Made by a program: the position numbers and the translations under genes | Notes under the pieces: generated by a model | The model's database searches: none | Seen by the model: only the letters and a program-made list of their open reading frames with translations | Told to the model about the DNA's origin: nothing | Assembly (NCBI RefSeq): GCF_017358165.1 | Contig: NZ_CP071446.1 | Coordinates: forward strand, 744,001-808,000 | From: Thermosipho ferrireducens | GTDB taxonomy: Bacteria > Thermotogota > Thermotogae > Thermotogales > Fervidobacteriaceae | Reading direction: 5' to 3' | DNA length: 64,000 nucleotides | Part shown: in pieces, positions 1,320 through 12,290 of the stretch | Layout: each line of letters starts with the position of its first letter | How positions within the stretch are numbered: the stretch's first letter is position 1

Positions 1320-1904
1320 TTAATTCACGCTCCTTTTTACGTAAGACTTGTAGGCTAACCAGACAAGTAGTATGGAAAGCAACAAAGATAAGAATATGTT
1401 TCCCTGATGAGTTGGGCTTATAAGTGCATATGGATTAAAACTTGGGCCGATTTGAGTTGATCCAAGATCTCCAATTATTAAGTCTGCTATTATGAACAAA
1501 ATAGGAATACCTACATTGTCAAGGCCAAAAGAAACTGAAAGCATTGATATTGCAAAGATGGCTGATGAGAAATTTATAGATTTGAGAAGGATTATCATAT
1601 TAGTTGTAAAACTACTAGTTACAAATAAATATGAAATGAAATGCGTGACTGACACTGCAAATATCAGAAAGAGGAAAGAATATATGAATATTTCTCCTTT
1701 TGCAAACGGGAGATAATAAAGCAGTCTGTCTTTTTTATGCTTTACATCAGAGGGGAGCATATTTATTATGAGAAAAAAGGTAAAAAACATTCTGGTTGTG
1801 TAATTTGGAATAAAAAGGAGTAGAAGAAAGATAAACCAGCTTCCAAGTTTTTCTTTCAATTCTTTTTCATAATATATTTCCATTCTTGACAAACTAATTT
1901 TCAT
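1320..1904 (-). CDS. ABC transporter membrane subunit (hypothetical permease)
   Basis: A hydrophobic protein of 194 aa with about five to six membrane segments (for example GSWFIFLLLLFIP, FFTFFLIINM, IFIYSFLFLIFAVSV and the C-terminal NIFLSLLLSILLVWLAY). An upstream in-frame ATG at 1949 exists. I chose 1904 because GAGGAGGTG (1912-1920) lies at ideal distance from it, and because the predicted protein then starts MKISLSRM, with only an 11-bp overlap with the GntR gene. Its position between a GntR regulator and an ABC ATPase makes it the membrane partner of that ATPase. No family-specific motif is visible, so the permease call is from context. Confidence 0.7.
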   Translation of the reverse strand: MKISLSRMEIYYEKELKEKLGSWFIFLLLLFIPNYTTRMFFTFFLIINMLPSDVKHKKDRLLYYLPFAKGEIFIYSFLFLIFAVSVTHFISYLFVTSSFTTNMIILLKSINFSSAIFAISMLSVSFGLDNVGIPILFIIADLIIGDLGSTQIGPSFNPYALISPTHQGNIFLSLLLSILLVWLAYKSYVKRSVN

Positions 1905-2253
1905 TTTTCCACACCTCCTCAAAAAGTACAAGTATAGTTTGAAGATCAATATGTGTTTCTTTTAGCTTTTTTACACATTCTTTAATCTTTTTCATTACAT
2001 CAACAGATATTGGAATTTTTTTACTAACAAAAAAACCAATTCCATGTTCTGCTTCAAGTATTCCTTCATTTTTTAAACGCTCTAACGCTTTAAGTACAGT
2101 ATTTATGTTGACATCAAATACATCCTGAAGTTTTCGCACAGGCGGAAGTTGAGAACCAGGTTGAAATTCACCTTTAATGATTTCTGCCTTTATCATATTT
2201 ATAATTTGTATGTATGCAGGAATTCCGTTGTGTTTGTCTACTTTTTTTAACAT
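1894..2253 (-). CDS. GntR-family transcriptional regulator, YtrA subfamily
   Basis: A 119-aa DNA-binding protein. Residues ~10-75 are the GntR winged helix: PAYIQIINMIKAEIIKGEF, then SQLPPVRKLQDVFDVNINTV as recognition helix region, then LKNEGILEAEHGIGFFV as wing. Only ~45 residues follow, too few for a FadR or HutC effector domain. This is typical of the YtrA subfamily, which usually controls ABC transporter genes in its own operon. GAGGTG precedes the ATG. The gene begins 4 bp after the upstream repeat protein and overlaps the membrane subunit. The inverted repeat at 3213-3238 over the operon promoter is the natural candidate operator (inference). Confidence 0.9.
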   Translation of the reverse strand: MLKKVDKHNGIPAYIQIINMIKAEIIKGEFQPGSQLPPVRKLQDVFDVNINTVLKALERLKNEGILEAEHGIGFFVSKKIPISVDVMKKIKECVKKLKETHIDLQTILVLFEEVWKNEN

Positions 2254-2257
2254 AATA

Positions 2258-3193
2258 TCACCTCAAGATCACTTTTGGGCCCCTCACCTTGATATCAATA
2301 CCTTTAGAATTTTTTATAGTGATACTTCCAGAGGTTCCATGGACGCTCAGGCTTCTTTTAAATGAATCATTTGAGGGAGCATATTCCAGTACCCCGGAGA
2401 CAGCGGTACCTGAAATTTCTATATCGTAAGAATTTTTAATAGTCACATTTAACTTTATACCTGTTCCGTCGATATCTATGGTTTCTACGTTGTACTTTCC
2501 ATTTATTGAGATGCCAGTTCCATCTACGTTCATATAAGTTCCAGAGAAATTACCGTTTAAAACAATACCAGTTCCATCTATATCAAAATCCCTCGAGTTT
2601 ATATCTCCGTTTATTTTTATACCTGTTCCATTAACATCAAGTCTTTCTAACATAGTTGTATTTTTACCATAAATAACAATTCCCGTTGAGTTAACATTTA
2701 AGAATTTTAAATAATCCGTACCTATATAGAAAATATATGTTTTATTTCTTTCACCACCTGTGAATTTTGTATTTGTTTCTGATATTTGAGCATTTAATTG
2801 AGCAGGATATCTGATAGAATTACCTTCTTCCAGGTATACAATAACTCCACCATTTAGACGGATTTCCACACTTTTAGAAGTTTCTATAGAGGCAGAAGGC
2901 TCTATTGTCCTGGAATTGTTTGAATTATTGTAGCTGTAAAAATTGAAAAAGGGAAAAGTGAAGATAAATTTTGAATTTAAAAAACTTGTTATACTAAGAG
3001 AAGGAATGAAAATTATAAAACTTAATATGATAAATCCAATTTTACCTTTTGGAAGAATTAATGCAAAAAAAATGGTTCCAAAGATTCCAAGAATAATCTT
3101 AAGTGGCCAAAACGGTGCAAACCACCCGAGAATTCCCAGTGTTCCGGCTATAAGTAATTTAAATAAAACCGGATACTTTTTATGTATTTTCAT
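2258..3193 (-). CDS. Membrane-anchored protein with DGTGI beta-helix-like repeats
   Basis: First gene of the operon, 311 aa, preceded by GGAGGTG. Residues ~10-75 contain about three hydrophobic segments (including LLIAGTLGILGWFAPFW and IGFIILSFIIFIPSL). The rest is soluble and built of roughly 19-residue repeats with the core V/I-D/N-G-T-G-I: NSTGIVIYG, NGTGIKING, DGTGIVLNG, DGTGISING and DGTGIKLNV, then a degenerate SGTAVSG. Such short beta-rich repeats resemble the DUF4097-type or bactofilin-like beta-helix folds, but I cannot assign a family from sequence. Linked to a GntR-ABC module, it may sense or buffer envelope conditions (inference). Confidence 0.7.
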   Translation of the reverse strand: MKIHKKYPVLFKLLIAGTLGILGWFAPFWPLKIILGIFGTIFFALILPKGKIGFIILSFIIFIPSLSITSFLNSKFIFTFPFFNFYSYNNSNNSRTIEPSASIETSKSVEIRLNGGVIVYLEEGNSIRYPAQLNAQISETNTKFTGGERNKTYIFYIGTDYLKFLNVNSTGIVIYGKNTTMLERLDVNGTGIKINGDINSRDFDIDGTGIVLNGNFSGTYMNVDGTGISINGKYNVETIDIDGTGIKLNVTIKNSYDIEISGTAVSGVLEYAPSNDSFKRSLSVHGTSGSITIKNSKGIDIKVRGPKVILR

Positions 3194-3212
3194 AACATCA
3201 CCTCCGGTGTGA

Positions 3213-3255
3213 TAGTGTTCTACACAACTATAACACTAATACTTAAATGTGTCAA
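3213..3255 (-). promoter_or_regulatory. Sigma-A promoter with overlapping inverted-repeat operator (GntR/ABC operon)
   Basis: On the minus strand TTGACA (3255-3250), a 17-bp spacer and TATAGT (3232-3227) form a near-consensus promoter just upstream of the repeat protein gene. A perfect 7-bp inverted repeat, TAGTGTT (3213-3219) and AACACTA (3232-3238) with 12 bp between, covers the -10 and start region. GTGT-type dyads are known for YtrA-like GntR repressors, so autorepression is the simplest reading. Confidence 0.75.
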
Positions 3256-3337
3256 GAAAAAAATGAAAATAAAAGTCAAAAGTTCTAACAAATATTAATT
3301 TAGAAAAAACTTTGGGAAAGATTGACGGTACATAGGA

Positions 3338-5605
3338 TTATATGTTTATATCGTATTTAATGTGGCTGCTGTTTTCAAGGATAGCTTTTTTTGCGAGAAT
3401 ATCAGCTAACTCATTTAATTTGTCATTAGAGTGCGCTTTAACTTTGGTGAATTTTATTTTGAAAAATTTTGAGTAGTATTCATATTGCTTTTTATATAGT
3501 TTTGTTAAATTAGTTTTTGCTCTCCATAAACTCAATGCCCACTTTTCTATCCCGGTATAGTCATAGTTTATTTCTATACAGTTCAATTTTTCCTGCCTTG
3601 CGTATTCAAAGGCTAATAGGGCCGCAAGAATTTCACCTGCCACATTTCTGTGCTTTAAATAATCACTTTTGGAGCAAACTTTCCAGTATTTTTCTACATT
3701 TTGATTTCTTATCACAACAATTCCAGCGCCAAATTTTTTCAGCCTGTTCTCATAACTTCCATCAATGTATATTTTCACACATTTTGCATTTTCAATGTGG
3801 GAAGATTCAGCTTCAAAAGCGTTGATACTTTCCGATTTTTTATTAAATATACTCAAAAATTCTTTTGCTATTATTTCGTTTGTTGCTTCTAAAATTTTTA
3901 GATATGTTGGTATAAATTGTTTATTGTAGAATATTTGAATTTTCAGATAATTTTTCAGTTTTTTTATAAAATAAACCTCCTGATAGTTAAAATGTTGAAC
4001 TTTACATATCTTGAAATTATGCGGTTCTAAAAATCGTTTAAATCTTTCAAATAAGTTTCTTAAAAAATGATCTGGAAAATGTAGATTATTAGAGCCATAT
4101 TCTACGGACATATTTATGTTATCTTTTATAGAAAAATTGTTTTTATTTTCTAATTTTAACTTTGAGAAAAACTTTTTTTCAAATGGAAGTTCTGTAATGA
4201 ATATTTTTTTTCGTGAGCGGGTGATAGAAGTATATAACCACTGGAAATATTCTTTACTGAATGTTGAACTGTAATATTCCGGATCTATAAATACATTTTC
4301 CCATTCTCCACCCTGCGCCTTATGTGTTGTTATTGCATATCCATATTTAACATGTAAGGAATTATAGTAAGGGTCGTTTCTTAATACCTCTAATATGTAC
4401 TCTTTTGATTTTCTTTTATTCTCTGGAATTTTACTTATGACAAGAGTATACAGTGCTTTTTTTATCTTAGGTTCTATGCCAGTTGTTTTTGAATCTAAGG
4501 AGTTTGCCAATATTTTTCGAGTAAGGTATTCATTTGACGAAAGATTTTTCAATTTAACATCGTAAAATTCTAATTTAATATATTTTTCTTTGTTTATAGG
4601 TATTTGAGGAATTACTTCATAATTTAGTATTTTCACGACTTTGAGAAACTCGCCGTTAAAAATGACTTTGTCATTGTAATACGTATTTTTTACGTTTAAT
4701 AATATTTCACCGATTTCCAGTTTATTTGAAAAATTCATTTTTTCTCTAATAAAATAATTGTATCTTAAAGCTTTTTCGTTTTTAGAGCAGAGAATGATAT
4801 TTGAATGTATATTACTTATGTCAAAATGTTCAATTAGGTTGTCAACTTTTACAAAATCATTTGAATATACAAGCTCTAAGTGATTAAGTTCATTATTTTC
4901 AATACTGCTTTTGATAATGTTAGCGTTTTTTAAAACAGTACTATCATCCTTTTGTCTTACTACTTTTGTAAGATATAGTTTTTTACCTTTTAAATTAAAC
5001 TTTTTTTCTATATATTCTTTGTCAAGAGCGGGTGATTGAGAAGAACCAACAGGCGGAAGCTGGTACTCATCACCCACAAATATTATTTTGTTACTTTCAC
5101 CATTTTTGACATATTCGACTAAATCAGAAAGTAATTTTCCACTTCCAAATATTAAATCGTTGTCAGAGATGTCAGAATTTTTGTTGTCATGTATCATAGA
5201 ACTTTCGTCTATTATAAATATGGTATTACTGTCTGATGAAAGTTTTAATGCAAAATATGTTTTAATTTCATTTATTTCAACATCTTTTTTGTGAGTTTCT
5301 GATTCATCAAATATTAAGTCTGTATGCAACAAATTATATATTTCTTTGTGGATTGTTTTAGCCTCGTTGTTTGTTTTTTCGCTCAGTATTCTGGCAGCTC
5401 TGCCCGTTGGAGCTAGTAATACAAATTTAATTCCCATTTGTTCAAGATATTTCACATAGTTTGAAATAAGAAAAGTTTTTCCAGAACCTGCACTTCCCTG
5501 GATTATTAAAAAGTTCAGATTATTAGAAGTAAATTGTTTTAGTTCATCAAATATGTATTTTTGCTCTTTTGTAAATACGAATTTTCTTTGAAGGTTTTGA
5601 GGCAT
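3338..5605 (-). CDS. SF1 (RecD-like) DNA helicase fused to a C-terminal RNase H domain
   Basis: A 755-aa two-enzyme protein. The N-terminal ~500 residues are an SF1 helicase. Walker A is GSAGSGKT (37-44), followed by a Ia-like APTGRAA, a Walker B FIIDESSM, motif III VGDEYQLPPVGSSQ, and the UvrD_C_2-type end with TTHKAQGGEW and YTSITRSRKK. From about residue 605 comes an RNase H fold with candidate catalytic residues IYIDGSY, VAGEIL, NYDYTG and NELADILAKK, plus KAHSND. The set matches the D-E-D-D plus His pattern. I start at the ATG at 5605 (GGGGG upstream) rather than the TTG at 5641. Likely role: unwinding and degrading RNA in RNA:DNA hybrids (inference). Monocistronic as far as seen. Confidence 0.88.
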   Translation of the reverse strand: MPQNLQRKFVFTKEQKYIFDELKQFTSNNLNFLIIQGSAGSGKTFLISNYVKYLEQMGIKFVLLAPTGRAARILSEKTNNEAKTIHKEIYNLLHTDLIFDESETHKKDVEINEIKTYFALKLSSDSNTIFIIDESSMIHDNKNSDISDNDLIFGSGKLLSDLVEYVKNGESNKIIFVGDEYQLPPVGSSQSPALDKEYIEKKFNLKGKKLYLTKVVRQKDDSTVLKNANIIKSSIENNELNHLELVYSNDFVKVDNLIEHFDISNIHSNIILCSKNEKALRYNYFIREKMNFSNKLEIGEILLNVKNTYYNDKVIFNGEFLKVVKILNYEVIPQIPINKEKYIKLEFYDVKLKNLSSNEYLTRKILANSLDSKTTGIEPKIKKALYTLVISKIPENKRKSKEYILEVLRNDPYYNSLHVKYGYAITTHKAQGGEWENVFIDPEYYSSTFSKEYFQWLYTSITRSRKKIFITELPFEKKFFSKLKLENKNNFSIKDNINMSVEYGSNNLHFPDHFLRNLFERFKRFLEPHNFKICKVQHFNYQEVYFIKKLKNYLKIQIFYNKQFIPTYLKILEATNEIIAKEFLSIFNKKSESINAFEAESSHIENAKCVKIYIDGSYENRLKKFGAGIVVIRNQNVEKYWKVCSKSDYLKHRNVAGEILAALLAFEYARQEKLNCIEINYDYTGIEKWALSLWRAKTNLTKLYKKQYEYYSKFFKIKFTKVKAHSNDKLNELADILAKKAILENSSHIKYDINI

Positions 5606-5665: not shown

Positions 5666-5945
5666 TAATACTGTTAGCAAGGCTTGCCCCGAACACAAAG
5701 TACGAAAGATCTAACGCGGATTAACGAAGTTAGCCTCCCATCTGTGTCATTCCGAGGAGCAAGAAGGTGAAGAATCCTCCACTCTGTCATTCCGAGGAGC
5801 GCATGCGACGAGGAATCTTAATTAGCGAGTGTTAGCGAGCTTGGCGAGGTTAGCAAGGCTTGTCCTGAGCACGGAGTGCGAAGGATCTTGCAAAAATTAT
5901 CCCCCAACCATGTCATTCTGAATACATAGTGCGAAGGATCTTAAT
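5666..5945. repeat. Dispersed quasi-palindromic repeat cluster 1
   Basis: The 461-bp gap between the divergent helicase and acyltransferase genes contains at least four degenerate copies of a ~34-bp element. It begins TGTCATTCCGAGGAGCG and ends CGACGAGGAATCTT with a short variable middle (5745-5777, 5785-5819, 5861-5889, 5911-5942). Between copies are short runs of TTAGCGAG-like heptamers (near 5822-5857). Related copies lie at 40.1 and 45.4 kb. No ORF, tRNA or transposase is seen here. The elements could form hairpins in RNA from either strand. Confidence 0.8.
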
Positions 5946-6862: not shown

Positions 6863-9460
6863 TTGAAACAAGTGAAAGAAGCGTTAGTGCTAATAACAAT
6901 AGATACTATGAGATACGATGATAAAATATTTTTGCTCGAAAATGATGGAGGGTTTATAGATTTTAAAAATGTTTTTGCAACAGGAACGAGTACTCCATTT
7001 GTATTTCCGGGGATTTTTGCTTCGTGTTATCCTGCTGTATATCGACCTTCCGTTCCAAAACTTGCAGAGGTATTAAAATCTAATGGATATGCAACGTTTG
7101 GACATAATGGAGGCAATGTGTACTGCTCTGATGTTAATGGTTATGATGTTGGTTTTGATTTTTTTAAAGATAGATTTAAGCAAAACACTATGACAGGTCT
7201 AAGTACATATATACCATCTTACAATGATATATTGAGTGACTTTTTTAAATGGATTGATGAAGTAAAAAGTGAGAAAATATTTTCGTGGTTACATTTTATG
7301 GATTTACATGGAAGATGGGATCATTTTAAATATTTGAGTGAAGAATATAGGCGAATAGCCTTGAAGGTGTATCAAAAAAAGAGTAAAAAATTAGAATTTG
7401 ATAGCAGAGAATTATCAGATTACAAGAATTTAAGGGCAGAAGTGTTAAAACATTTGAAAGTTGGAATATCTGAGATTATGGATTTTGTTGGAAAGCATGC
7501 TGAAAAATATATTTTGATACTAACATCTGACCATGGAGAAGAGTTAATGGAACATGGCAATATTGACCATTTACCAAAATTATACGATGAAATTTTGCAC
7601 GTTCCGTTTATGATTGCGACAAATATAGAAAAATTGAGAGAGCAGTTTAAAAGTGTAAAAAATAATCTGATTTCTTTAATAGATTTACCGGTTACATTAG
7701 TAGATACTCTGGGCTTTGAGAAACCAAAAGAGTGGCAGGGATTAAATTTTGTAAAGAAAAAAAGAGATTTTATTTATGCAGAAAGTTTCAGGCAGAAAAA
7801 CTCTCCACGGCATGATCCAGCTATGAGAGGTGTAAGGAATTATTGTGTAAGAACTTTAGAATGGAAATATATGATGCTTGATACAAAAGAGACGTTTTTT
7901 GATTTACAAAAAGATCCATATGAACTCAAACCCGAAAGTGTTCCAGAGAAAATAAAAAATTATGTCAAAGAAATTCTTAAAAATGAACTTAAAAATCGTT
8001 TAAAAGTTATAGTTGGAAATAAGCTTTCAAACAAGAAGGAATTCAAAAAGGAAAATGAAGGTAACAGGGGCGAAGGGTTTTTACTATCGGAGTTGAAAGG
8101 AGAAAATTATGGTAAAGTAGTAGAGTTTTTTAAGAAGGTTGCGCCAAAGACCGATAAAGATTATGTAATTTTATCTCTTGCATATTACAATCTTAAAAAA
8201 AGGAATGAAGCTATTACTGCTTTAAAAAGAGCTCTTACCATTAATCCTGGCAACCTCGATGCTCTTTTTAACCTTTCGCAGATTTATCATGAAATGCGAA
8301 AATGGAGCAAATTATACGATGTTGCTAAAAGATATTTTGAAATTGATCCGAACAACTGGCAGATTAACGATATGTTGTGCGATGTTTATGCATTTGAAGG
8401 ACATTTTGAAAAAGCAATAGAATATCTTCAGAGAGCTTTGAACTTTGCTCCAAAGGAAATATTACCTGAGATAGGTGAAAAAATACATTTTTTAAAATCA
8501 AAAGAAAAGGAAGTAGAGAATAAACCGAAATTAGCATTTATATGCGCGAAGGGGTTAGATAGTTTTTTGGATGATATAGTGAAAAGTTTAAGTAGTGAAT
8601 ATTGGGTGAAAAAATATAGAGTTAATAATTCAAAAGAGATATATTCGGCGATAGATTGGGCAGATATAATATGGTTTGAATGGGCAAATGAAGTGGCTAT
8701 CATCGGTACTAATTATCCAAAAATTGTTGGCAAATCAGTATTTGTAAGACTGCATAGTTATGAGTTATTTACAACGTATCCTGTGAAAATAAACTGGAAC
8801 AATGTTAATAAGATAATTTTTGTAGCTCCTCATATTAAGGAAATTTTTGAAAGATCATTTCCGAGAATTTTAGAAAAAGTTAATTGGGAAGTTGTTTATA
8901 ATGGAATAGATCTGGATAACGTCTCTTTTGAAAAAAAAGAAAAAGGATATGATATAGCGTGGGTTGCTCATATAAATCACAAAAAAAATCCTGAAATGAT
9001 AATCCAAATAATTAAGAAATTAACAGAAGTTGATGAGCGTTACAAAATACATGTGGCTGGAGATTTTCAGGAAAGGCGTTACGAACTTTATTTAAAGCAC
9101 ATGGTTAAGAGAATGAGATTAGAAAGAAATGTGATATTTTATGGATGGATAGATGATATGGAAGAATGGTGGAAAGATAAAAATTATCTACTTTCTACAA
9201 GTGTGTTTGAAAGTTTTGGCTTTGCCATAATAGAGGCAATGGCAAGGGGTATAAAGCCGGTAATTCACAGTTTTTATGGAGCAGAAAGGTTATATCCTGA
9301 AAATTTACTTTTCGATACGATAGATGAGGCAGTTCAATTTATAATCTCAGGTGATTATAATTCCGCGGAATACAGGAGTTTTGTTGAAAGGTATTCGTTA
9401 AAGAAACAAATTAAAGAAATAAAAAAAATCTTAAAATTTAAATCAGGGAGAGGAAATTAG
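6863..9460 (+). CDS. Alkaline-phosphatase/sulfatase-like domain + TPR + GT4 glycosyltransferase fusion
   Basis: An 865-aa three-part protein. Residues ~5-390 are an alkaline phosphatase superfamily (sulfatase-like) domain, with the metal aspartate in LITIDTMRYDD (D14), a Ser/Thr candidate nucleophile in TGTSTPFVFP (S43 or T44, not the Cys-x-Pro-Ser-Arg of true sulfatases), and TSDHGEE (D223, H224). Residues ~405-545 are TPR repeats. Residues ~553-840 are a GT-B, family-4-like glycosyltransferase with VVYNGIDL and the EX7E motif in FESFGFAIIEAMARG. Start is TTG at 6863 with GAGGAGG 8 bases away. No signal peptide is seen, so it is probably cytoplasmic. It may add both a sugar and a phospho-linked group; this is inference. 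Confidence 0.85.
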   Translation: MKQVKEALVLITIDTMRYDDKIFLLENDGGFIDFKNVFATGTSTPFVFPGIFASCYPAVYRPSVPKLAEVLKSNGYATFGHNGGNVYCSDVNGYDVGFDFFKDRFKQNTMTGLSTYIPSYNDILSDFFKWIDEVKSEKIFSWLHFMDLHGRWDHFKYLSEEYRRIALKVYQKKSKKLEFDSRELSDYKNLRAEVLKHLKVGISEIMDFVGKHAEKYILILTSDHGEELMEHGNIDHLPKLYDEILHVPFMIATNIEKLREQFKSVKNNLISLIDLPVTLVDTLGFEKPKEWQGLNFVKKKRDFIYAESFRQKNSPRHDPAMRGVRNYCVRTLEWKYMMLDTKETFFDLQKDPYELKPESVPEKIKNYVKEILKNELKNRLKVIVGNKLSNKKEFKKENEGNRGEGFLLSELKGENYGKVVEFFKKVAPKTDKDYVILSLAYYNLKKRNEAITALKRALTINPGNLDALFNLSQIYHEMRKWSKLYDVAKRYFEIDPNNWQINDMLCDVYAFEGHFEKAIEYLQRALNFAPKEILPEIGEKIHFLKSKEKEVENKPKLAFICAKGLDSFLDDIVKSLSSEYWVKKYRVNNSKEIYSAIDWADIIWFEWANEVAIIGTNYPKIVGKSVFVRLHSYELFTTYPVKINWNNVNKIIFVAPHIKEIFERSFPRILEKVNWEVVYNGIDLDNVSFEKKEKGYDIAWVAHINHKKNPEMIIQIIKKLTEVDERYKIHVAGDFQERRYELYLKHMVKRMRLERNVIFYGWIDDMEEWWKDKNYLLSTSVFESFGFAIIEAMARGIKPVIHSFYGAERLYPENLLFDTIDEAVQFIISGDYNSAEYRSFVERYSLKKQIKEIKKILKFKSGRGN

Positions 9461-9461
9461 C

Positions 9462-12290
9462 ATGGATATAACTGGGTATTTAAGAAACGGAGACTTTAAA
9501 AGAGTAATCGAAGCATTTTCAAAGTTAAAGTCCAGGACAGCAAGTGATTACGTAGCTTTATCCCTGGCATATTACAATCTGGGAGAAAAGAATCGTGCAA
9601 TAGCTGCTTTGAAAAAAGCAATTAAAATAGAACCGAAAAATTTAGATGCACTTTTTAATCTTGCCCATATTTACCACGAAATAAAAAAGTGGGATAAGTT
9701 GGAAGACATAGCACTAAAATACCTTAGTCTCGATCCTCATAATTGGGAAATTAACGATATGCTATGTGATTTATATATTTTTGAAGGACATTTTGAAAAA
9801 GCTATAGAATACCTTAAAAGAGTCCTGGAAAATGTTCCGGAAAATTTAGTTTTTCAAGTGAAAGAAAAAATGAGCTACTTAAAAAAGAAGATAGAAGAGT
9901 CCAAAAAGAAAACGAGAGTGGCATTTGTATGCCAAAAAGGATTGGGACATTTTTTAAACGGTATAATATACGGCATAAGCGATGAATACTGGGTAAAGAA
10001 GTTTTTAGTTACAGAGAATGAAGAAGTCTATAGAGCAATAGATTGGGCAGATATAGTGTGGTTTGAATGGGCAAATGAAGTAGCAATTATTGGAAGCAAT
10101 TATTCTGGAATTGAAGGGAAGCCTGCAATTGTAAGATTACATAGGTATGAAGCTTTTAGAGAATTTCCTGAAATGATTAGATGGAACAACATATCTACCC
10201 TGGTATTGGTGTCTCATTCTATGAAAGAAGTTATAAGAAAATATCATCCCGAAATTGGAAAGAAAACACAGATAGAAGTAATTTATAATGGGATAGATTT
10301 AAGTACAGTGTCGTTTAAAAAGAGAAATAAAGGGTATAATATTGCTTTTGCAGCATATATTAATAGCAGGAAAAACATACAGCTAGCACTCCAAATTATG
10401 AAAAAATTAATAGCCATAGACAAAAGATACAAACTACATATAGCCGGTGATTTTCAAGAATTGGTGCTTGATCTTTATTTAGATTATATGGTGAAAGAAA
10501 TGGGGTTAGAAAATAACGTGATATTTTATGGATGGGTTGATAATATGGAGGAATGGTGGGAAGATAAAAATTATTTGCTTTCTACAAGCATTCATGAAGG
10601 TCATCCGTACAATATTATGGAAGCAATGGCACGTGGCATAAAACCTGTGATTCATAATTTTTATGGAGCGAAAGAACTTTATGAACAGCGTTGGATATTT
10701 AACGATATAGATAAGGCATGCAAAATAATAGCCAGTAAGGAATATGATTCAGAATATTATAGAAATTTTGTTCGGAAGAAAGGATGGTTGCTGGATAATC
10801 AAATAACTCAGGTTAGGAAGTTAATTAGTAAGTTGAAAAAAACAGTCAATTTGAAAATTTCAGAAATAAAAAAGGAACCAGACTTAAACAATTTGGATGA
10901 AGTTGATAAACATCTAAATTATTTATCACAGATTTCTGAAAAAGACTATGTAAAATTTCTGGAAGATTTTATTGTAAAGAGTCGTTTCCCTGTGGATTTT
11001 AAGATGGAATATTATTCTTATTCTTTGTATAGAAATATGAGAAATTACGATAGGTTTTCATACATTTCAGATGTTATACCAGAATATTTTCATAAAGAAG
11101 GAAAAAAAGTATTTGAAAACATCAGCGATAAAAGTCACAGAAAAAGCAACTTATTAAAAGCAAATTCGAAAATTAAAGTAGGTTTTTTGTTAAATGGTTT
11201 GGATTATTTTCAGGTAATTTTTAGGCATATATTCGAAGCAGTGGTAGCCAGTAAAGATCTTCACTTTGAATATCATTTTATAAGTGTTTTGCCTGAAAAC
11301 TTTTTTCAAAATTCCAGGATTGCTAAAAATATGTTGCAAGAATATAACATTAAGTATTACATCCCATCAAGTAAAAATCTTATTCAAAGAGCAAACGAAA
11401 TACTTACATATATTAAAGAGGAAAAAATGGATGTAGTAATTATTCAGTCATTTTATTTGATACCGTTGATGATGTTTATGTATCCTGCTATTAGAAAAAT
11501 TGTACCTGTAATTGGACAGTGGATGTTGCAGGATTTAGAAAAGTATTTTTTGGATAAAATAGATTTTTTAATGCTGGAAGAAAAAGAGAAAGAACATTTG
11601 TTAAATGGAGGTTTGAAAAAGACAAAATTATTTGAATTTATTAATGCTGTTGATAGAGAAATTATAGAAAATTCTCGTGACGTTAAAAGTTTTTATGGAC
11701 TACCGAGGAATAGCGAGGTAGTAATTTCAGTAGGACGGGCGATAAAATATATGAACAAGGAATTCTGGAAAGTAGTTTTAGAATTACTTGAAAATATCCA
11801 GAAAGATTTACGATTTATTTTTATAGGTCCTGATAAAAAAAGTGTGGGAAAATATGTGCCAGACTTTTATTTAAAAAATAAAAAAATAATACTTCATGGA
11901 CCTGATTTAAATGGAAGAAGTTTTTTAAAAAGTGCTGATTACTATATAAATTCATTTCCCAATGGAGGTGGTATTTCTTTTAAGGAAGCATATTACGCTG
12001 GATTACCAATTATAAGTTTCTATTCCAGGTGTAAAAATAAGATAAATATACATTGTCGTTCTTTGTATCTTCCGATCATTTATTATGAAAATGCAGAAAA
12101 TTACTTTCCAGAATACAGAGAGGGAGAAAATAATGTAAATAAGTTCTACGAAATGGCTTATAAACTAATAACAGATAAAGGTTTCAAAGATAGTTTACAA
12201 AATAGTAGAAGAATTCCAAAAGAAAAAATGACTTATGAGTTCTTTATTACCAATTTTGAAAAGTTTATAATTAATAATTTCAGGAGGTGA
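9462..12290 (+). CDS. TPR + GT4 + second glycosyltransferase (OGT/SPINDLY-like) protein
   Basis: A 942-aa protein that starts 1 bp after the preceding stop (GGAGAGGAAATTAGC then ATG). Residues 1-150 are TPRs and ~155-460 a GT4 domain, with VIYNGIDL and EX7E in IHEGHPYNIMEAMARG. Both parts are clearly paralogous to the C-terminal half of the preceding protein; shared blocks include DWADI-WFEWANEVAIIG. From ~570 a second GT-B domain follows (KVGFLLNGLDY, VVISVGRAIKY, SADYYINSFPNGGGISFKEA), with a layout like the C-terminal part of O-GlcNAc-transferase-type enzymes. TPR-linked glycosyltransferases often act on proteins, so a role in flagellin or surface-protein glycosylation is plausible. The acceptor is not known. 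Confidence 0.85.
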   Translation: MDITGYLRNGDFKRVIEAFSKLKSRTASDYVALSLAYYNLGEKNRAIAALKKAIKIEPKNLDALFNLAHIYHEIKKWDKLEDIALKYLSLDPHNWEINDMLCDLYIFEGHFEKAIEYLKRVLENVPENLVFQVKEKMSYLKKKIEESKKKTRVAFVCQKGLGHFLNGIIYGISDEYWVKKFLVTENEEVYRAIDWADIVWFEWANEVAIIGSNYSGIEGKPAIVRLHRYEAFREFPEMIRWNNISTLVLVSHSMKEVIRKYHPEIGKKTQIEVIYNGIDLSTVSFKKRNKGYNIAFAAYINSRKNIQLALQIMKKLIAIDKRYKLHIAGDFQELVLDLYLDYMVKEMGLENNVIFYGWVDNMEEWWEDKNYLLSTSIHEGHPYNIMEAMARGIKPVIHNFYGAKELYEQRWIFNDIDKACKIIASKEYDSEYYRNFVRKKGWLLDNQITQVRKLISKLKKTVNLKISEIKKEPDLNNLDEVDKHLNYLSQISEKDYVKFLEDFIVKSRFPVDFKMEYYSYSLYRNMRNYDRFSYISDVIPEYFHKEGKKVFENISDKSHRKSNLLKANSKIKVGFLLNGLDYFQVIFRHIFEAVVASKDLHFEYHFISVLPENFFQNSRIAKNMLQEYNIKYYIPSSKNLIQRANEILTYIKEEKMDVVIIQSFYLIPLMMFMYPAIRKIVPVIGQWMLQDLEKYFLDKIDFLMLEEKEKEHLLNGGLKKTKLFEFINAVDREIIENSRDVKSFYGLPRNSEVVISVGRAIKYMNKEFWKVVLELLENIQKDLRFIFIGPDKKSVGKYVPDFYLKNKKIILHGPDLNGRSFLKSADYYINSFPNGGGISFKEAYYAGLPIISFYSRCKNKINIHCRSLYLPIIYYENAENYFPEYREGENNVNKFYEMAYKLITDKGFKDSLQNSRRIPKEKMTYEFFITNFEKFIINNFRR

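What the first reader, a model, noticed from the sequence alone, without database searches (positions are those of the whole stretch)
3338..5605. Helicase-RNase H fusion
A RecD-like SF1 helicase with intact motifs is followed by an RNase H domain with an apparently complete catalytic set. Such a protein could unwind and cut the RNA of R-loops in one step. The fusion is uncommon, and its gene stands alone with no repair partners.
Basis: partly seen in the sequence, partly recalled or inferred. Interest (0 to 1): 0.66.

Follow-up and report, generated by a model that had tools for sequence, protein, structure and literature searches.

The report
Helicase–TBP–RNase H fusion in Thermotogota
A heat-loving bacterium carries a single protein that joins a DNA-unwinding motor, a small domain likely to grip nucleic acid, and an RNA-cutting RNase H; it is built from a helicase normally found in candidate anti-phage systems, and in several sister species it is the only RNase H of its type that could be found.

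Summary
In detail: 3338-5605 (-) is one intact 755-aa gene with a complete SF1B helicase core and a C-terminal type-1 RNase H with all catalytic residues (D615, E658, D682, H725, D735). It is no frameshift artefact: eight other intact genes in Thermotogota share the architecture and their helicases form one clade (100/100). Helicase plus TBP match PADLOC PDC-M16A at E 1e-138, the helicase of a two-gene candidate anti-phage (TOTE-type) system. So 'RecD-like' is too loose, and the absent partner is the TPR/cold-shock protein M16B, not found by one profile in the genome. RNase H sits where the canonical second TBP domain would be. In five near-complete Marinitoga genomes the fusion is the only type-1 RNase H detected; in four genomes of the window's own family a helicase-less TBP-RNase H is. 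Best reading: a candidate-defence helicase re-used as the cell's RNA:DNA-hybrid processing enzyme (unwind, clamp, cut). Unwinding, hybrid binding and cutting are inferred, not shown. New variant of a known kind; moderate interest.

The parts
3338..5605 (-). whole gene, 755 aa: SF1B helicase - TBP-like - RNase HI
4181..5578 (-). SF1B helicase domain, aa 10-475, PDC-M16A type
   Evidence: Pfam, PADLOC M16A over aa 8-634 E 1.3e-138, VIA-align Z 29 to Dda and RecD2
5474..5497 (-). helicase motif I (Walker A) GSAGSGKT, aa 37-44
5198..5209 (-). helicase motif II DESS, aa 133-136, invariant
5051..5074 (-). helicase motif III region GDEYQLPP, aa 178-185
4301..4342 (-). GYAITTHKAQGGEW conserved stretch, aa 422-435 (helicase domain 2)
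4208..4237 (-). helicase motif VI region LYTSITRSRK, aa 457-466
3809..4069 (-). TBP-like domain, aa 513-599 (helix, four strands, helix), PF22721 TBP-TOTE over aa 513-585
   Evidence: Pfam E 8.9e-13; model secondary structure
3365..3787 (-). type-1 RNase H domain, aa 607-747
   Evidence: Pfam PF00075; PDB 2kq2 by sequence; VIA-align Z 18.2 to archaeal RNase HI 2ehg
3761..3763 (-). catalytic D615
   Evidence: invariant
3632..3634 (-). catalytic E658
   Evidence: invariant
3560..3562 (-). catalytic D682
   Evidence: invariant
3431..3433 (-). conserved H725
   Evidence: invariant
3401..3403 (-). catalytic D735
   Evidence: invariant

Best explanation
It is a three-domain RNA:DNA-hybrid processing enzyme. 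An SF1B helicase of the PDC-M16A/TOTE type (presumably moving 5' to 3' on single-stranded DNA) opens or remodels a hybrid such as an R-loop or a lagging-strand primer. A TBP-like domain, in the place that the hybrid-binding domain has in HBD-RNase H1 and the N-domain has in RNase H3, holds the nucleic acid. The C-terminal RNase HI domain cuts the RNA by the two-metal DEDD mechanism. It arose once in Thermotogota when RNase H took the place of the second TBP domain of a candidate-defence helicase and the partner gene M16B was dropped. It now serves as the cell's type-1 RNase H in Marinitoga, and in related genomes survives as a helicase-less TBP-RNase H. Shown by computation: architecture, intact motifs, clade, census and purifying selection. 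Inferred: hybrid binding by the TBP-like domain, coupled unwinding and cutting, the direction of evolution, and the housekeeping role.
For: Architecture and intact motifs. M16A match E 1.3e-138 over aa 8-634. Helicase fold Z 29 to Dda and RecD2, RNase H fold Z 18 to archaeal RNase HI. Fusion helicases one clade 100/100; fused and TBP-linked RNases H group together, 81/77. A profile of type-1 RNase H finds only the fusion in G050, G088, G090, G091, G092 and only TBP-RNase H in G003, G007, G010, G013 (PF00075, agrees), each genome also with one RNase HII. The PDLC01170 TPR/cold-shock model finds nothing in any fusion genome. dN well below dS in helicase and RNase H domains between Marinitoga species. 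HBD-RNase H1 and RNase H3 both carry small hybrid-binding domains, the latter TBP-like (PMC4132731).
Against: No activity has been measured. PF22721 is named after conflict systems, and its ligand was not established here; a sequence-profile comparison with one RNase HIII N-domain gave nothing. The RNase H gene tree puts the G009 and G010 copies among Marinitoga copies, so the gene moves between lineages, as accessory genes do. The window's own genome keeps a second, divergent type-1 RNase H with DEDD intact and an RNase HII, so there it is not the only one.
Confidence: 0.6

Rival explanations
1. It is still an anti-phage effector: a solitary M16A helicase in which RNase H replaced the second TBP domain and the partner was lost, cutting phage RNA:DNA intermediates (replication primers, transcripts).
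For: Strong M16A match. A Bacteroidota MAG carries an independent helicase-RNase H-TBP-TBP protein next to a TPR/cold-shock gene, so RNase H is used inside M16-type operons (L100). M16A-like helicases are found on plasmids. Transfer between lineages.
Against: M16B partner not found in the genomes and the window gene has no defence neighbours among those scanned. Present in all seven Marinitoga genomes searched, with a nitroreductase-like gene directly downstream in four of them. Sole detected type-1 RNase H in five.
Confidence: 0.22
2. The helicase and RNase H act on separate substrates: the fusion only co-expresses a repair helicase and an ordinary RNase HI.
For: TBP-RNase H exists without the helicase in seven related genomes, so the nuclease does not need it. 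The model's linker around aa 591-606 has pLDDT under 50.
Against: The fusion is kept across both families with low dN in both domains.
Confidence: 0.15
3. Artefact: a frameshift or assembly error joined two genes, or the RNase H is dead.
For: The Marinitoga lauensis copy is split into two ORFs, but its RNase HII is split too, which suggests assembly indels there.
Against: Eight other intact fusions; catalytic residues invariant.
Confidence: 0.02

Closest known systems
PDC-M16A / TOTE helicase (PADLOC PDLC04475; TOTE = TPR, OB, TBP, Effector, Aravind et al. 2022 as cited in PMC12458937)
   Same: SF1B helicase followed by a TBP-like domain, aligned over aa 8-634
   Different: Canonical homologues often have two TBP domains and lie beside a TPR or TPR/cold-shock gene; here one TBP, then RNase H, and no partner found
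RNase H1 with hybrid-binding domain (Cauli_VI type; in the T. maritima control genome and L014)
   Same: Type-1 RNase H with a small nucleic-acid-binding domain in front
   Different: Binding domain is TBP-like, not Cauli_VI; helicase added
RNase HIII (RNase H3)
   Same: TBP-like domain in front of an RNase H fold; in RNase H3 it binds RNA/DNA hybrid (PMC4132731)
   Different: Catalytic domain is type 1 (PF00075), not type 2; no detectable sequence similarity of the N-domains; helicase added
RecD2 / Dda / Pif1 SF1B helicases
   Same: Helicase fold, Z 29 to Dda and RecD2
   Different: RecD2 model scored far below its cut-off (113 against 500 bits); TBP and RNase H domains absent there

Membership tests
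Type-1 RNase H (RNase HI) | RNase H fold with D-E-D-D and His | tested here: met
Type-1 RNase H (RNase HI) | Cuts RNA in RNA:DNA hybrids | not testable with these tools
   needs an assay
PDC-M16 / TOTE system | M16A helicase | tested here: met
   PDLC04475 E 1.3e-138
PDC-M16 / TOTE system | TBP-like domain | tested here: met
   PF22721
PDC-M16 / TOTE system | TPR/OB (M16B) partner gene | tested here: not met
   PDLC01170 finds none in the window's genome (the several M16B models were not run genome-wide), and the flanking genes include an ABC transporter, a GntR regulator, a hexapeptide transferase and a sulfatase/glycosyltransferase
RecD2 | TIGR01448 equivalog cut-off of 500 bits | tested here: not met
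   113 bits
RNase HIII | Type-2 RNase H catalytic domain (PF01351) | tested here: not met
   PF00075 instead; the genome's PF01351 hit is a separate 227-aa open frame
RNase HIII | TBP-like N-domain that binds hybrid | tested here: inconclusive
   TBP-like by PF22721; profile comparison with one HIII N-domain gave nothing

The most novel reading that the evidence does not exclude
A candidate anti-phage helicase has been domesticated in Thermotogota as the housekeeping RNase HI, with the TBP-like domain as a third, independent kind of hybrid-binding domain on an RNase H, physically coupled to a 5'-3' helicase.
Probability: 0.35. Interest if true: 0.72.

Novelty: new variant of a known kind. Interest (0 to 1): 0.52.

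Why it matters
If right, it shows a defence-type helicase becoming basic hybrid-clearing machinery, and gives a natural one-polypeptide unwinding-and-cutting enzyme for RNA:DNA hybrids, possibly thermostable, in which coupling can be tested directly. It also suggests that TBP-like domains were recruited twice as the binding module of an RNase H (RNase H3, and here on a type-1 nuclease).

Tried and rejected
Frameshift artefact: rejected by eight other intact relatives. RecD2: cut-off not met. Homology of the TBP-like domain to the RNase HIII N-domain by hhalign with one sequence: no signal (the RNase HIII came from the genome of L036). A lone PF00075 census was not trusted, because it does not ring in the T. 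maritima control while Cauli_VI does; a profile of eight Thermotogota RNases H was used instead. The genome-contig scan used helicase peptides only and kept the best 80, so RNase H fusions outside Thermotogota may have been missed; within it the only near-full-length relative was Marinitoga lauensis. Scans of viral contigs found helicase-TBP or RNase H matches but no full-length relative. Four literature searches aimed at such a fusion or at the TOTE/PDC-M16 names turned up no report of it in the titles, abstracts and passages seen; that library holds open-licence papers only.

Full report
The finding at 3338-5605 on the minus strand is real. It is one gene of 755 aa starting at ATG 5605, behind a GGGGG run. 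Pfam assigns an SF1 helicase (AAA_30/AAA_19 and UvrD_C_2, aa 20-470), a TBP-like domain PF22721 'TBP-TOTE' (aa 513-585) and a type-1 RNase H PF00075 (aa 610-742), each above its curated cut-off. The helicase motifs listed under the observation check and the RNase H residues D615, E658, D682, H725 and D735 are intact and conserved. AlphaFold gives a confident model, mean pLDDT 88.7 with a low-confidence linker at 591-606; the helicase matches Dda and RecD2 at Z 29 and the nuclease archaeal RNase HI at Z 18.

It is not RecD2: TIGR01448 scores 113 bits against a cut-off of 500. PADLOC PDC-M16A covers aa 8-634 at E 1.3e-138. Aligned homologues elsewhere carry one or two TBP-like domains after the helicase and often an adjacent TPR or TPR/cold-shock gene, which scored as M16B or PDLC01170 where scanned. 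The name TOTE stands for TPR, OB, TBP, Effector, and such systems often include RNase H domains (PMC12458937). In the window protein the RNase H sits where the second TBP domain of these homologues lies. The PDLC01170 model finds no partner in the window's genome or in any fusion genome, and the flanking genes include an ABC transporter, a GntR regulator, a hexapeptide transferase and a sulfatase/glycosyltransferase.

The same architecture occurs in two further genomes of the window's family and in all seven Marinitoga genomes searched (group g20, named through the M. lauensis record, whose sequence is shared with G089), in M. lauensis broken into two ORFs; that assembly's RNase HII is split as well. 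The helicase parts of the fusions are one clade, 100/100. Seven other genomes of the window's family carry a shorter TBP-RNase H protein without the helicase; in four it lies by an aminopeptidase-like gene. The copy in G010 lies inside the fusion clade of the RNase H tree (starred branches) and its RNase H is 78-80% identical to some fusion RNases H against 55-59% to its genus mates, so there the helicase was probably lost. Whether the other TBP-RNase H proteins are losses or an ancestral intermediate is not settled; loss is favoured because the helicase-TBP order is shared with M16A.

Census. A profile of eight Thermotogota type-1 RNases H finds only the fusion in five Marinitoga genomes of 99-100% completeness, and only the TBP-RNase H in G003, G007, G010 and G013. 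PF00075 agrees for these. G087 also has a Cauli_VI RNase H. Each of these genomes has one RNase HII. The window's genome has the fusion, a divergent 156-aa type-1 RNase H with DEDD intact, and one RNase HII. dN is about 0.11-0.17 in helicase and RNase H domains against dS about 0.8-1.4 between Marinitoga species.

An independent fusion exists: L100, a Bacteroidota MAG, has helicase-RNase H-TBP-TBP beside a TPR/cold-shock gene; its helicase is outside the fusion clade.

Mechanism, inferred: the SF1B motor opens or remodels a hybrid, the TBP-like domain holds it, the RNase H cuts the RNA. In RNase H3 a TBP-like N-domain binds RNA/DNA hybrid specifically (PMC4132731); this is by analogy only, since hhalign found no sequence link. 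The rival, a still-active defence effector, is not excluded.

Literature: four searches aimed at such a fusion or the TOTE/PDC-M16 names showed no report of it in the titles, abstracts and passages seen; that library covers open-licence papers only.

Noticed in passing
window 5746, 5786, 40066, 40108, 40255, 45381 (+): A 15-base element GTCATTCCGAGGAGC occurs six times (five exact, one with a single mismatch) against 0.02 expected; the copies at 5746 and 5786 lie in a repeat-rich stretch upstream of the fusion gene.
   Followed up: partly
window 6863-9460 and 9462-12290 (+): Two adjacent long proteins with TPR and group-1 glycosyltransferase domains, the first with an N-terminal sulfatase domain.
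   Followed up: no
L010 (G005), 1498-3330 (+): M16A-type helicase with one weak TBP match and no RNase H; the PDLC01170 model finds no partner in that genome.
   Followed up: partly
L132 (G052): An M16A-type helicase with two TBP domains followed by a TPR/cold-shock gene, a TOTE-type pair within the window's class.
   Followed up: no
L100 5995-8619 (+): Independent helicase-RNase H-TBP-TBP fusion in a Bacteroidota MAG beside a TPR/cold-shock gene.
   Followed up: partly
L006 (G010): TBP-RNase H beside the same aminopeptidase-like gene as in its genus mates, but with an RNase H 78-80% identical to some Marinitoga and G009 fusions: probable replacement by a transferred copy.
   Followed up: partly
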